Assembly (NCBI GenBank): GCA_025141015.1
Contig: CP081098.1
Location: forward strand, 4,098,501 to 4,162,500
Length of the DNA: 64,000 bases
Direction: 5' to 3'
Source of the DNA: Rhodobacteraceae bacterium M382
Lineage (GTDB): Bacteria > Pseudomonadota > Alphaproteobacteria > Rhodobacterales > Rhodobacteraceae
The translations under genes and the position numbers were made by a program. Below, one piece after another: positions 42,540 to 49,535 of the stretch; position 1 is the first letter of the stretch; every line of letters starts with the position of its first letter. Below the pieces are notes generated by a model. That model had not been told where the DNA came from and ran no database searches. It saw nothing but the letters and a program-made list of their open reading frames with translations.

Positions 42540-42629
42540 GGAGCTGTGGCCGAGTGGTCGAAGGCGCTCCCCTGCTAAGGGAGTAGGCGAGGAATCGTCT
42601 CGAGGGTTCGAATCCCTTCGGCTCCGCCA
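42540..42629 (+). tRNA. tRNA-Ser (anticodon GCU), CCA encoded
   Basis: Acceptor GGAGCTG pairs with CGGCTCC (one G-U). D-arm GTGGCCGAGTGG, anticodon stem-loop CTCCC-CTGCTAA-GGGAG with anticodon GCT, a long variable arm (TAGGCGAGGAATCGTCTCG) as in serine tRNAs, and TpsiC arm AGGGTTCGAATCCCT. The 3' CCA is in the DNA at 42627-42629. Its 3' end is the integration site of the element that follows. Confidence 0.97.
42616..42629 (+). repeat. Left attachment-site core (attL)
   Basis: CTTCGGCTCCGCCA, the last 14 bases of tRNA-Ser including CCA, repeated exactly at 50876-50889. The full tRNA stays intact on this side. Confidence 0.85.
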
Positions 42630-42858: not shown

Positions 42859-43734
42859 CTATCCGACTCGTGCAATCCGCGCACGTTCGGTAAGGTCGCG
42901 GAACAAGTCTTGGTGCGCCTTAAAGTCTTTGTCGGTAAAGCGAATGCGGTACATGCCCCAGCGCGAATTGTATTCCAACGCATCTACGCCTGCGTCTTCG
43001 AGCAAGACATCGACCTCATCAGTGCGCGGCAACTTTGGTTCAAAAAGAACAAACGACTTTTTGGGGCGAAAGGTGACGTAGTTGTGGGCGCGTCCATCTT
43101 TGATAAGACCAACGTAGAACTTATTGTACTTGAGTTCGCTTGTCGGGTCGCTCTCCTTCACAATCTCAAACATGCGGTCCATGAGGCCAACAGTCTTAGG
43201 CGTCCCCTTGTCCGTCTCCCAATAGGCGCGGTCGGTTGGTGCGCTGATGGCGTCTTCGTCTTCATCCACAAGGCCCCGTTGAACCTCGTCCAGTACCTTG
43301 GTGAAAACAAGCGTGACGTGTTCACCGACTTGAAAGGCCTGCATCTGGATGGCGACAATCGGCAATGCACCGTTGAACAAGGACACGACGTTTAGAAAAC
43401 GGCTGGTGATATTCTCGGCCACAATAACAGCGCAATGCTCATATTGGGGATAGCGCTTGCGCTCAATGTCCCAGTATTCAATTGTGCGGATGATGTGGGT
43501 CTCGTCCGTTGCCCCTAGCTGCAACTCGACCTCATAGCGCTTGTAGGTGTCGGGGTCTTGCAGCAGCAGGTCCAACCGCCCAGCGCGGACTTGGACACGT
43601 TCGCGGTCGCGCAGGACAAGGTCGCCAAGCCCCAGAACGGAGGGGTCTTCTGCGATGATGTCCTGAACCCAGTTCTCTGAGAGGGTCGGATGGTTTTTGA
43701 GCGAGATTGGCTTTGGGCGTGTGTATGCGGTCAT
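42859..43734 (-). CDS. Nuclease-like companion of the MmeI-type enzyme (PD-(D/E)xK-like N-terminus, DUF5655-like C-terminus)
   Basis: 291 residues, no firm family. The N-terminal half has the layout of DUF91/NucS-like PD-(D/E)xK folds: VQVRAGRLDLLLQDPDT then KRYEVELQLG, giving Asp55 and Glu70-x-Gln72, with Gln in place of the usual Lys. The C-terminal part (KFYVGLIKDGRAHNYVTFRPKKSFVLFEPKLP, then a GMYRIRFTDKDF end) resembles DUF5655. Its ATG overlaps the stop of the restriction-modification gene by four bases, so the two are made together. It could be an accessory nuclease, a specificity or regulatory subunit, or a DNA-end binder; activity is unproven. Confidence 0.6.
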   Translation of the reverse strand: MTAYTRPKPISLKNHPTLSENWVQDIIAEDPSVLGLGDLVLRDRERVQVRAGRLDLLLQDPDTYKRYEVELQLGATDETHIIRTIEYWDIERKRYPQYEHCAVIVAENITSRFLNVVSLFNGALPIVAIQMQAFQVGEHVTLVFTKVLDEVQRGLVDEDEDAISAPTDRAYWETDKGTPKTVGLMDRMFEIVKESDPTSELKYNKFYVGLIKDGRAHNYVTFRPKKSFVLFEPKLPRTDEVDVLLEDAGVDALEYNSRWGMYRIRFTDKDFKAHQDLFRDLTERARIARVG

Positions 43735-46670
43735 TTCTTCGCCTTTGTTTTCTTTTTGGGCTTTTTAGCTTTTTCGGCCACTTTAGCCTCTGCCATTGCC
43801 CGCTCTTGGTTGAGCTTGAACAGGCGGGACAGGATTTCATCCTCTGATAGCGTGCCTGCGCGCCAATCATCGCCCCAGCCGTAGGCCTCTGCCACAGCTT
43901 CATCCAGCGCCTTGTGGGCGTGGTCGAGCCATGCGGGGCGGGCGTTGTAGAGGTTGGTGAGGGTGCGTTTCTTGAGTTCCTTGGCGGCGGTATCGTCTTT
44001 TGGCAGGATGCGGTCGGGGTAGCCTTCGACCACTTCGGGGACACGGGTGACAAGGTCGGCGGGGTTGAGCCAGTTTTCCCGCAGCTCATTCAGACGCGCG
44101 GCGGCGGTGGCGATTTTGATCGCGCGCGGGTCGGTGGCATAGTCGGCGGCGGGGATGTTGGGGGTGAGACCTTCGGGGAAAGGAAAAGTCGCGAATACAC
44201 TTCCCGCATTGTAAACTGGATCGTTGCCAGCCCCGTGCCAAGAGCATGTTTTTGACGTCCATAATTCATGGAATTTGGATGAGAGCATCCCAAATGATGT
44301 GTCGTCGTCACGGCAAATAATCATAAGTCTTTGGTCTGGAAGAACGCTTACAGGCATCCAGCAAAATAGCCTATGCTTAGAAACCATTGGCGTCACTAAT
44401 ACACGCTCCATAGAAGCCATGGACTTTCGGAGTGCTGGCACCGTTTCTCCGTGTTTCCACCAACGCTCCCGCCTTATTGCCCGACGGTTTGTGTCTCGTA
44501 TAGGTTTGACCAGCCGAAAAATATGTTCATACGGAACGTCAAAAAATGCTGCTTCCCGTTCAGACATATCAGCAAAATCTACAATCCACCTGTCGCTCGG
44601 TCTCCGAACGATGTCGTTGGCAATCCATAGTGGCCGTAAGACGTTCGAGTTCGGTTCTCCATTTGGATTTAGGGGTAATTTGAGCCAAGCACGGGCTGTC
44701 TCGCCTTCGATGTCAAATGGGCCAATTTTTGGTGGCCCTCGGAAAATGACATCGGCTTGTCCTTGCAGCTTTGCTGCATCGAATGATTGAGCTGTCAGTG
44801 AAGGGGAAATTTCGTCAACTGGATTACCATCCAATTGCTTCTGTATTGAGGCTGATTGCCCTGCACAGAAGATTGAGACTCTTACGGCTGCACCCTCGAC
44901 AACCCATGGCAAATCAGACCAAGCGTTAAAGATTGGGAAGCGACTACTTAGCGTTGAGAATGGAATATTACTTGAAGAAGACCGAATCGAATTTGTGGCA
45001 ACTAGACCGACCCGTCTAAGGCTTTTTCCCTGCAGAAATGCTTGAGCAAACCAATAGGTCACTAGGTCTGCGCTTTCAGGCACGCTTCCCTTATAAGCCG
45101 CACGCAGTTGGATTGTATATTCGTCACCAAGTTCCCTAAGGTGTCGCCCTGCACCCAAAAACGGCGGGTTCCCAATCACTACATCCGCTTTAGGCCACTT
45201 CGACCGCGTTCCATCCGGCGCAAGCACCGCATCCCTGTTGTCGATTGTGTCTACGCCGTCTGCGTCTTTCAGAGTCCGCAAAATCGGGTTCTTGGCCGCT
45301 TCAAATCCATTCCGCCGCATCCATTGGATTTCGCCGATCCAGACAGATACCCGCGCCAGTTCCGCCGCATAGGAGGACAGCTCAATCCCCAGCACCACCT
45401 CAGGTCCCAGTTGCGGAAAGCCGCGTGGCAGGCCCAGCGCCTCTGCCTCTAGGTTGACGCGGTGTTCGATGTTTTTTAGCTCTAACAAGGCGATATAGAG
45501 GAAGTTGCCAGACCCGCAGGCCGGGTCCAGCGCACGAAACGCTTTGAGCCGCTCGACAAAGCCAAGGTGCAGCTTTTCCGCCTTAACCAGCGCGCGGGTA
45601 GCAGCCGATTTTTCTTTGGTGCTGAGCAGCTTTGTCTTGGTGGCCTTGGGTGCTTTGTCCAGCTGCACCTCAATCTGGGCTTTCACCTCTGCCCATTCCG
45701 CCAACAGCGGCTCCACAATCACCGGGTTGACGATTTGCATGATTTTTTCGCGGTCGGTGTAATGCGCGCCAAGCTGGCTGCGTTTGGCAGGGTCCAAGCC
45801 GCGTTCAAACAAGGTGCCAAGGATAGAGGGGTCAATATCGGACCAATCCAGCGTGGCGGCGCGAATGAGGTCGTCAATATCTTCCCATTCCAGAGGCAAC
45901 ACATCGTCACTGTCAAACAAGCCGCCGTTGAACCATTCAACCGTTTCAAAACCCACCAAGCCGCCCGTTTTCATCGCACCAAACAGCGCCTTGGCATGGA
46001 TGGCGAACGTCTCGGGCTTGGGGCGGGCGGTCTTAATCATCCGCTCAAACATCTTGTTCGGCAGCAACTCCACATCCTCAGCGAACATGCAAAACACCAA
46101 GCGGTTGATGAAGTGCGCCACCTCTTGCGGGTCGTGGCCGCGTTCGCGTAGGCGCTGAGCCATATTGGCAAAGTTTTGCGCGGCCTCTTCAGTGACCAGT
46201 TGGCGGGTCTTGGTCGGCTTGAGCTTGTCAGGATCAAGGAAGGCATTGCGCAACAAATCGCGGTTTGCCGCATCCGTCAGGTCGTCCAAGTGGATTGTGT
46301 GGACGTTCTGGACGGTGTTAGTCCAGTTGGTGTGGATGCGGATTACATCCATATCCGACACAATGAGGAGCGGCGGGTTTTCCAGCGCGATTGCATATTG
46401 CAAAAGCTGGTCAAACGCCTTGTCAAGGTTGGCGCGCTTGCCCTTATACTCCCAAGCAAAGCAATTTTTTCGCCAAACGTCCGCCCAACCGTCACCACCG
46501 CTGGTCTTTGACGCGCCTTTCTCGAAAGTGAACCATTCGCCCTTACTATCCGCAGTGGTCGGGTCTTCAATGTCCAACAATTTACAAAGGTCGATGAAAT
46601 GGGACTGAGAGGCAGATCGCTCTTTGAGTTCGTTATTTTGCCACTTTTTAATAAATGCTTGGGGCGTCAT
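43731..46670 (-). CDS. MmeI-like type IIL (IIG) restriction-modification enzyme
   Basis: 979 residues joining endonuclease, methyltransferase and target recognition in one chain. The N-terminal nuclease site is Asp64-x9-Glu74-x-Lys76 (ADVWRKNCFAWEYKGK), exactly the D-x9-ExK motif described for MmeI. The gamma-class N6-adenine methyltransferase follows: DPACGSGNFLYIAL near 382-395 (motif I) and VIGNPPF near 498-504 (motif IV). The later part (about 600-850) should hold the target-recognition domain; the tail is lysine-rich. It methylates host DNA and cuts unmodified DNA. ATG 46670 has AGGA seven bases upstream. The gene is coupled to the companion at 42859-43734. Confidence 0.9.
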   Translation of the reverse strand: MTPQAFIKKWQNNELKERSASQSHFIDLCKLLDIEDPTTADSKGEWFTFEKGASKTSGGDGWADVWRKNCFAWEYKGKRANLDKAFDQLLQYAIALENPPLLIVSDMDVIRIHTNWTNTVQNVHTIHLDDLTDAANRDLLRNAFLDPDKLKPTKTRQLVTEEAAQNFANMAQRLRERGHDPQEVAHFINRLVFCMFAEDVELLPNKMFERMIKTARPKPETFAIHAKALFGAMKTGGLVGFETVEWFNGGLFDSDDVLPLEWEDIDDLIRAATLDWSDIDPSILGTLFERGLDPAKRSQLGAHYTDREKIMQIVNPVIVEPLLAEWAEVKAQIEVQLDKAPKATKTKLLSTKEKSAATRALVKAEKLHLGFVERLKAFRALDPACGSGNFLYIALLELKNIEHRVNLEAEALGLPRGFPQLGPEVVLGIELSSYAAELARVSVWIGEIQWMRRNGFEAAKNPILRTLKDADGVDTIDNRDAVLAPDGTRSKWPKADVVIGNPPFLGAGRHLRELGDEYTIQLRAAYKGSVPESADLVTYWFAQAFLQGKSLRRVGLVATNSIRSSSSNIPFSTLSSRFPIFNAWSDLPWVVEGAAVRVSIFCAGQSASIQKQLDGNPVDEISPSLTAQSFDAAKLQGQADVIFRGPPKIGPFDIEGETARAWLKLPLNPNGEPNSNVLRPLWIANDIVRRPSDRWIVDFADMSEREAAFFDVPYEHIFRLVKPIRDTNRRAIRRERWWKHGETVPALRKSMASMERVLVTPMVSKHRLFCWMPVSVLPDQRLMIICRDDDTSFGMLSSKFHELWTSKTCSWHGAGNDPVYNAGSVFATFPFPEGLTPNIPAADYATDPRAIKIATAAARLNELRENWLNPADLVTRVPEVVEGYPDRILPKDDTAAKELKKRTLTNLYNARPAWLDHAHKALDEAVAEAYGWGDDWRAGTLSEDEILSRLFKLNQERAMAEAKVAEKAKKPKKKTKAKK

Positions 46671-46740
46671 GATAATTCCTAGGCGTACCATTTTCCAGCA
46701 ATAGAGGCGGTTGATTGGGCAAGGTCAACTGTCGGTCGTG

Positions 46741-48553: not shown

Positions 48554-48748
48554 TTATCCAGCCAGCGGTTTGGTGGTTGGTCTATTGGAAAGCCAATCTG
48601 CGATTGCGCTTTCGGGCCAAGCAACGGCACGCTTGCCGATCCGGACAGGTCGGGGGAAGTCCCCCTTATCCATCATATAGTAGATGCTTGAGCGACTGAG
48701 GCCAGTGACGGCTTCAACAGCTGGGCGGCGCAGGTGATGTTGGGGCAT
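48554..48748 (-). CDS. AlpA-family regulator / excisionase-like protein
   Basis: 64 residues: LRRPAVEAVTGLSRSSIYYMMDKGDFPRPVRIGKRAVAWPESAIADWLSNR is a full MerR-like helix-turn-helix of the AlpA (PF05930) type. These proteins switch on integrase genes or help excision in P4-like satellites and islands. AAAGGG precedes the ATG at 48748; a longer frame upstream is not conserved in style. Confidence 0.9.
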   Translation of the reverse strand: MPQHHLRRPAVEAVTGLSRSSIYYMMDKGDFPRPVRIGKRAVAWPESAIADWLSNRPTTKPLAG

Positions 48749-48845
48749 ATCGTTTCCCTTTGGATCAGTAAGTAACGACTGAGAACCTAACGGGATATGG
48801 CCTTTGAAATAGGTGTCACGAATAAGAAACCGTTTCGATTCAGTG

Positions 48846-49535
48846 TCACGATTTCGGCTTTTTCGGTTTTCGTCCGGGTTTGGAAATGTCTGGCCTTCGC
48901 TCCCGAGCAAGGTTCCAAGCAAAACGAAAGCCGCGCACACTCACTTCGTCACCTAGTAGAGATTTCGCATCTTGAAACTTCGGCAAGGCACCTAGATCAA
49001 CTAACCTGACTATTTCATCAGACAGGGCCTTGGGTGACTTAGCTTTTTCCGGAGGAGAGTCGTTTGCTCCTTGAGAGCGCTGATCGACATCAGCAGTGTT
49101 TTGCGTGCGGGGCGTTAGAAACGCTGGAACATCGGCTTCTAGTTCATTCAAGAAATCAATGAAATCATCGTGTGGGAATATCAGCGGCAGGTGAAGAAAG
49201 GGCCCGTATCGTCGCTGAAGCTCTCGCTCGTCGGGAGGCTCATTCAAGTGATTTGGCGACAGTGCAGAGCCGACAGTTCCAACCATGATGTCGATATGGT
49301 CGTTGAGATTGTCATACGGGTCAAATGTGAAAGTTAGAAAGCGTGATGCAGGTAAAGCCTCACCATTAGCTAAACAAACCGCGACCTCACTACTTTCTTG
49401 CATATACAGCCAAGTGACTTCGAAGTTCTCATCGCCAAAAAATTCTATGTCACCTATGCGGCCTTCCTCGTCAAAGATGGCAGATATCGAGAGGAAAATC
49501 TCATTTAGGCTAATCCAACCTTTTGGAGCAAACAC
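48846..49535 (-). CDS. Hypothetical protein translationally coupled to the integrase
   Basis: 229 residues, no family recognised. The N-terminal two thirds are acidic with alternating beta-like stretches (WISLNEIFLSISAIFDEEGRIGDIEFFGDENFEVTWLY). A low-complexity acidic/polar linker (DVDQRSQGANDSPPEKAKSP) leads to a basic C-terminus (GRKPKKPKS). Its GTG start shares one base with the integrase TAG stop (TAGTG), and GAGG lies eight bases before it, so it is made with the integrase. A role in integration control or island maintenance is possible. Confidence 0.6.
   Translation of the reverse strand: MFAPKGWISLNEIFLSISAIFDEEGRIGDIEFFGDENFEVTWLYMQESSEVAVCLANGEALPASRFLTFTFDPYDNLNDHIDIMVGTVGSALSPNHLNEPPDERELQRRYGPFLHLPLIFPHDDFIDFLNELEADVPAFLTPRTQNTADVDQRSQGANDSPPEKAKSPKALSDEIVRLVDLGALPKFQDAKSLLGDEVSVRGFRFAWNLARERRPDISKPGRKPKKPKS

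What the first reader, a model, noticed from the sequence alone, without database searches (positions are those of the whole stretch)
42859..46670. MmeI-type restriction-modification enzyme coupled to an uncharacterised nuclease-like partner
The single-chain enzyme has the complete MmeI signature D-x9-ExK plus DPACGSGN and NPPF. Type IIL systems of this kind normally need no second protein. Here the stop of the enzyme overlaps the start of a 291-residue protein with a PD-(D/E)xK-like D...ExQ layout and a DUF5655-like end. Strict coupling at the end of a tRNA-integrated island suggests a two-component defence module, with the second protein as effector, regulator or end-processing factor. This is the best candidate in the window for an undescribed system.
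Basis: partly seen in the sequence, partly recalled or inferred. Interest (0 to 1): 0.65.

Follow-up and report, generated by a model that had tools for sequence, protein, structure and literature searches.

The report
NucS-like companion nuclease behind restriction enzymes
A bacterial restriction enzyme overlaps a second gene that almost certainly encodes a DNA-cutting enzyme; that second gene is a widespread mobile family which usually travels alone, but whose closest relatives all sit directly behind restriction enzymes of quite different types, so it looks like an interchangeable companion rather than a dedicated MmeI partner.

Summary
In detail: a complete MmeI-like type IIL enzyme (43731-46691, minus strand) overlaps by 4 nt (ATGA) a 291-aa protein (42859-43734) at the tRNA-Ser end of an integrase island. 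The 291-aa protein is a PD-(D/E)xK nuclease of the NucS/EndoMS fold with an invariant D..ExQ site (59/59 homologues), followed by a DUF5655 / MotA-like double-wing domain.

The MmeI-specific two-component module is not supported. Five related MmeI genes whose 3' flank could be read lack the small gene. The small gene occurs in about 1-4% of genomes sampled across bacteria and archaea, and most copies stand alone.

Coupling to restriction-modification in general is real. In the supported clade holding the window protein, 7 of 7 members lie directly 3' of an R-M gene, and the partner type differs: MmeI-like, type ISP or type III. Over all family loci, 18/80 have an R-M gene nearby against 1/60 control windows. 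In one relative MmeI is deleted to a 98-aa stub while the nuclease is intact.

Best reading: an autonomous DNA nuclease of defence islands that one clade has turned into a generic 3' companion of R-M enzymes. Its activity, substrate and any defence phenotype are inferred, not shown.

The parts
43731..46691 (-). MmeI-like type IIL restriction-modification enzyme, 986 aa (alternative start at 46670)
46479..46481 (-). codon of D71, REase motif PD-(D/E)xK of the MmeI-like enzyme
   Evidence: MmeI D70 in PMC4833311
46443..46451 (-). codons of E81-Y-K83, ExK of the REase motif
45504..45527 (-). DPACGSGN, SAM-binding motif of the methyltransferase domain
45159..45170 (-). NPPF, catalytic motif of N6-adenine methyltransferase
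44172..44651 (-). target recognition domain (Pfam MmeI_TRD, sub-threshold 25.5 bits); 38-47% identical to L001 around here against 80-92% in the REase and methyltransferase parts
43731..43734 (-). ATGA overlap, stop of the MmeI-like gene and start of the small gene
42859..43734 (-). 291-aa companion nuclease: NucS-like PD-(D/E)xK domain plus DUF5655 double-wing domain
43570..43572 (-). codon of D55, aligned to the NucS catalytic Asp
43519..43527 (-). codons of E70-L-Q72, aligned to NucS ExK (Lys replaced by Gln in all 59 homologues)
42859..43233 (-). C-terminal DUF5655 / double-wing domain (about residues 168-290)
   Evidence: the Pfam match is on homologues, not on the window protein itself
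42540..42629 (+). tRNA-Ser(GCT), presumed attachment site of the island
   Evidence: tRNA-Ser also lies next to the small gene in L001, L002 and L005
49535..50806 (-). tyrosine integrase of the island
48554..48940 (-). AlpA-like regulator of the island

Best explanation
The 291-aa protein is a metal-dependent DNA nuclease: a NucS/EndoMS-type PD-(D/E)xK domain with a D55..E70-x-Q72 active site, joined to a DUF5655 double-wing domain that most likely binds DNA. The family is mobile, found across phyla and mostly stands alone, so it can act without a fixed partner. One clade has become the 3' companion gene of R-M enzymes. The R-M enzyme can be type IIL, ISP or III while the companion stays, so the companion does not depend on the R-M recognition sequence. 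Most likely mechanism (inferred): the overlap or close spacing couples its expression to the R-M enzyme, and it cuts foreign DNA as a second layer, through features read by the double-wing domain (unusual or modified bases, mismatches or branched ends) that the R-M enzyme misses or leaves behind. Shown: gene pair, fold and motif, distribution, partner exchange. Inferred: DNA cleavage, substrate, defence role.
For: AlphaFold2 model, pLDDT 89.7. Top PDB folds are EndoMS 5gke and NucS 2vld (E 1e-4, probability 1.00), with MotA C-terminal double wing, DUF1801 and YjbR further down. Profile-profile alignment to nine archaeal NucS proteins, E 0.002, places D55, E70 and Q72 on the NucS D and ExK (NucS catalytic D165/E179/K181 in PMC7343888). 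All 59 homologues keep D, E and Q. PD-ExQ sites are known in BglII and CoiA (PMC1189080). Clade of 7 (95/80 support) all directly 3' of R-M genes: window and L001 MmeI-like, L002 MmeI stub, L006 another MmeI-like, L004 type III Res, L005 and L016 type ISP. Clade 7/7 against 5/52 in the rest of the tree, Fisher 2e-6. R-M genes near 18/80 family loci (queries from the same locus excluded) against 1/60 control windows, p 1.6e-4. L002 keeps an intact nuclease with a 98-aa MmeI stub.
Against: No biochemistry, and no prediction of contact between the two proteins. The hhalign probability to NucS was low (13.8%) although its E-value was 0.002; the fold search is the stronger support. pTM is 0.54, so the domain arrangement is uncertain. 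The 80 loci are those most similar to the window protein, so they over-represent its clade; Fisher tests ignore relatedness, and the window itself prompted the clade test. Islands next to tRNA genes collect defence genes, which alone raises R-M proximity.
Confidence: 0.5

Rival explanations
1. Hitch-hiking cargo: the small nuclease and the R-M enzyme are independent defence genes loaded at the tRNA end of the same island type, with no functional link.
For: Most family members are not beside R-M genes; MmeI relatives do without it; in L001, L002 and L005 the gene lies, as here, beside a tRNA-Ser gene, where islands gather cargo.
Against: Five of the seven clade members share an exact 4-nt overlap with the upstream gene, with three unrelated partner sets (MmeI-like, a divergent MmeI-like, type ISP), and L040 repeats it with an Eco57I-type enzyme; random cargo would not repeatedly land in an operon frame.
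Confidence: 0.25
2. R-M-dependent end processor: the nuclease degrades or trims the ends or nicks made by the R-M enzyme so that cleavage of foreign DNA is irreversible.
For: Directly 3' of genes that carry endonuclease function in six of seven clade members (the seventh is a stub); NucS-type nucleases act on branched and mismatched DNA (PMC7343888, PMC8228993).
Against: Orphan copies are the majority; an intact copy persists beside a destroyed MmeI in L002.
Confidence: 0.17
3. Dedicated two-component MmeI module: the small protein is an obligate effector or regulator of the type IIL enzyme.
For: ATGA overlap in the window, L001, L002 and L006.
Against: The same clade pairs with type ISP and type III enzymes; MmeI homologues at 54-66% identity lack it; MmeI itself is active as a single chain (established knowledge).
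Confidence: 0.04
4. Repair companion of the methyltransferase, like Vsr beside Dcm: it removes mismatches or damage linked to methylation.
For: The NucS fold is that of a mismatch endonuclease.
Against: The MmeI-like partners carry N6-adenine methyltransferase motifs, which do not cause the C-to-T deamination that Vsr corrects; the domain that binds the mismatch in EndoMS (NucS N-terminal domain) is absent and replaced by DUF5655.
Confidence: 0.04

Closest known systems
NucS/EndoMS (Pfam PF01939, PDB 2vld, 5gke)
   Same: Nuclease fold (top PDB hits) and the position of catalytic D and E
   Different: No NucS N-terminal mismatch-binding domain; ExK is ExQ; a DUF5655 domain follows the nuclease; patchy mobile distribution instead of a housekeeping one
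NucS_C-DUF5655 proteins, probably COG3586, predicted PD-(D/E)xK nucleases (PMC1189080)
   Same: Same two-domain order; a canonical ExK member overlaps a distant homologue in L158; a COG3586 protein in a type I R-M cluster of Methanosarcina was noted in PMC1189080
   Different: The window family is a separate, tight subfamily (55-82% identity across phyla) with invariant ExQ; the COG3586 name is assigned from memory of the family and was not tested here
MmeI, type IIL R-M (PDB 5hr4)
   Same: REase D-x9-ExK, N6-adenine methyltransferase, helical spacer and a diverged TRD in one chain
   Different: Followed by an overlapping nuclease gene; MmeI needs none
PrrC in type IC R-M loci (PMC12707154)
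   Same: An accessory effector nuclease encoded inside an R-M locus
   Different: PrrC is an RNase that cuts tRNA-Lys and senses EcoPrrI inhibition; here a DNA nuclease fold, 3' of several R-M types

Membership tests
MmeI / type IIL R-M | Single chain with REase D-xn-ExK, MmeI methyltransferase motifs, TRD and C-terminal domain | tested here: met
   MmeI_TRD and MmeI_C are sub-threshold but in order
MmeI / type IIL R-M | Cuts about 20 nt from an asymmetric site and methylates one strand | not testable with these tools
   needs enzyme assay or methylome
NucS/EndoMS | PD-(D/E)xK nuclease domain of NucS fold | tested here: met
   Foldseek probability 1.00, E 1e-4; hhalign E 0.002 but probability 13.8%
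NucS/EndoMS | Catalytic D, E, K | tested here: not met
   K is Q in 59/59 homologues
NucS/EndoMS | N-terminal dimerisation and mismatch-binding domain | tested here: not met
   the nuclease domain begins near residue 8; no NucS-like N-domain
DUF5655 (PF18899) | C-terminal DUF5655 domain above the gathering score | tested here: inconclusive
   37/59 homologues match, best 1e-8; L080 25.6 bits against cut-off 24; the window protein itself gives no match
Dedicated two-component MmeI module | Conserved adjacency with MmeI-like genes in both directions | tested here: not met
R-M-associated companion (generic) | Enriched adjacency to R-M genes of any type | tested here: met
   7/7 in its clade; 18/80 against 1/60 controls

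The most novel reading that the evidence does not exclude
A new class of R-M accessory effector: a DNA nuclease whose double-wing domain, like the T4 MotA C-terminal domain, straddles or recognises modified bases, so that it cuts hypermodified phage DNA that the R-M enzyme cannot cut. It would be exchanged between R-M types as a ready-made cover for their common blind spot.
Probability: 0.15. Interest if true: 0.75.

Novelty: new variant of a known kind. Interest (0 to 1): 0.45.

Why it matters
Accessory genes of R-M loci are usually known from single cases. Here one nuclease clade keeps its place directly behind the restriction gene while the R-M system itself changes between types IIL, ISP and III. 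If the companion contributes to restriction, it points to a function that many R-M systems lack, independent of recognition sequence. It can be tested with one gene deletion and a small phage panel.

Tried and rejected
Pfam, NCBIfam and PDB sequence searches with the single protein found nothing, and a profile of 59 homologues found no PDB sequence. PADLOC hits PDC-S11 and PDC-M02A are weak and partial and not used. No phage record holds it; only four viral contigs do. A direct repeat marking island borders was sought and not found, and genus relatives gave only tRNA-sized matches there, so no empty site was obtained. NucS_C searched in seven host genomes found nothing useful; archaeal genomes were used instead. 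One R-M query (N6_L057_810) proved mislabelled and was dropped before the enrichment test. Vsr-like repair was considered and set low because the MmeI-like partners carry adenine-methyltransferase motifs. The plasmid hits read (four of 14) show the gene beside insertion sequences and hypothetical genes, in one case with a type I HsdR gene about 7 kb away. Paper searches found no paper naming DUF5655 and none on a NucS-like R-M companion; the library holds open-licence papers only.

Full report
What is there. On the minus strand a 986-aa ORF (43731-46691) ends in ATGA, where the stop overlaps the start of a 291-aa ORF (42859-43734). The large protein is an MmeI-like type IIL enzyme by Pfam, PADLOC and the MmeI structure. 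It has D71-x9-E81-Y-K83, DPACGSGN and NPPF; the MmeI residues D70, E80 and K82 are established as catalytic (PMC4833311). Beyond the small gene lies tRNA-Ser(GCT) at 42540-42629. An AlpA regulator and a tyrosine integrase lie at 48.6-50.8 kb, so the pair is cargo at the tRNA end of an island. No direct repeat of the tRNA end was found in the window.

What the small protein is. The protein alone matches no known family. Its homologues do: 359 stretches in one genome collection encode a relative, across many phyla and an archaeon, at 55-82% identity among the 80 kept. An alignment of 59 gave a confident model, pLDDT 89.7. The best folds in the PDB are EndoMS and NucS, with the MotA C-terminal double wing, DUF1801 and YjbR among lower hits; Bacillus phage G gp54 matches over the whole length among viral models. 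DUF5655 matches 37 of 59 members, at the C-terminal end. Profile comparison with nine archaeal NucS proteins places E20, D55, E70 and Q72 on the NucS invariant E, the catalytic D and the ExK motif. E20, D55, E68, E70 and Q72 are invariant in all 59. ExQ in place of ExK is known from BglII and CoiA (PMC1189080), so a working active site is plausible. Cleavage itself is not shown.

Is it tied to MmeI? No. Related MmeI enzymes in the same bacterial family (54-66% identity) were examined in six genomes. One is cut by the contig end; the other five have no small gene within 1.5 kb, nor in the larger stretches fetched for them. Conversely the small gene is beside MmeI-like genes only in the window, L001, L002, L006 and L018 of the loci examined, and most copies have no R-M neighbour. 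Prevalence was 3/101, 3/385 and 3/395 in sets of relatives, 6/296 and 12/294 in two other phyla.

Is it tied to R-M at all? Yes, in its own clade. The tree gives a supported set of seven (95/80): window, L001, L002, L004, L005, L006, L016. All seven have the gene directly downstream of an R-M gene: MmeI-like (window, L001, an internally deleted 98-aa stub in L002, a divergent MmeI-like in L006), type ISP (L005, L016) and type III Res (L004). Five of them share the exact 4-nt overlap. The sister group of six has none. Elsewhere in the tree an Eco57I-type enzyme (L040, again a 4-nt overlap), a type I gene (HsdS in L050, HsdM in L057), a type I HsdR region with Mrr (L010) and another MmeI-like gene (L018) recur next to it. 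By homology to R-M queries from other loci, 18 of 80 loci have an R-M gene nearby, against 1 of 60 control windows taken at spaced positions in family-member and related genomes. Limits: the 80 loci are the most similar ones, the tests ignore relatedness, and the window prompted the clade test.

What changes and what stays. Between the window and L001 the MmeI-like enzymes are 80-92% identical over the first 500 residues but 38-47% over residues 500-800, which include the target recognition region; the small proteins are 82% identical. Recognition sequence and even R-M type change while the companion is kept, so the companion is unlikely to depend on either.

Mechanism. Shown: gene pair, nuclease fold, conserved active-site residues, mobility, R-M association with partner exchange. 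Inferred: a DNA nuclease acting as a second layer of defence. The MotA C-terminal domain straddles DNA whose cytosines carry bulky modifications (PMC6755090), which makes cleavage of modified phage DNA an attractive but untested version; the same fold group also holds proteins with no such role. Accessory effectors in R-M loci have a precedent in PrrC (PMC12707154).

Verdict. The dedicated MmeI module is not supported; a generic R-M companion nuclease is the best reading, with hitch-hiking cargo the main rival.

Noticed in passing
L002:4036-4332: The MmeI-like gene is reduced by an in-frame internal deletion to 98 aa (N- and C-terminal ends joined) while the overlapping small gene is intact.
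   Followed up: partly
L158:6219-8002: A distant homologue of the small protein overlaps by 4 nt a 307-aa protein with NucS_C-like and DUF5655 domains and a canonical D..ExK: two related nucleases, ExQ and ExK, in one operon.
   Followed up: partly
L010:4212-9797: The small gene sits between HsdR plus a YgjP metallopeptidase and an Mrr-type restriction nuclease.
   Followed up: partly
L005:8876-9385 and L068:8914-9405: The small gene is followed in both loci by a short gene whose sequence looks nuclease-like by eye; the L005 protein matches no Pfam family and the resemblance was not tested.
   Followed up: no
BFVD G3MBC4 (Bacillus phage G gp54): A phage protein of 296 aa matches the model over its full length (E 3.5e-13, 11% identity), so the two-domain plan may also exist in a jumbo phage.
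   Followed up: no
window:46741-47409: 222-aa cysteine-rich protein of the island without a Pfam match; proteins of similar look lie upstream of the R-M gene in L001 (4232-4945) and L040 (3392-3910), which match each other.
   Followed up: no
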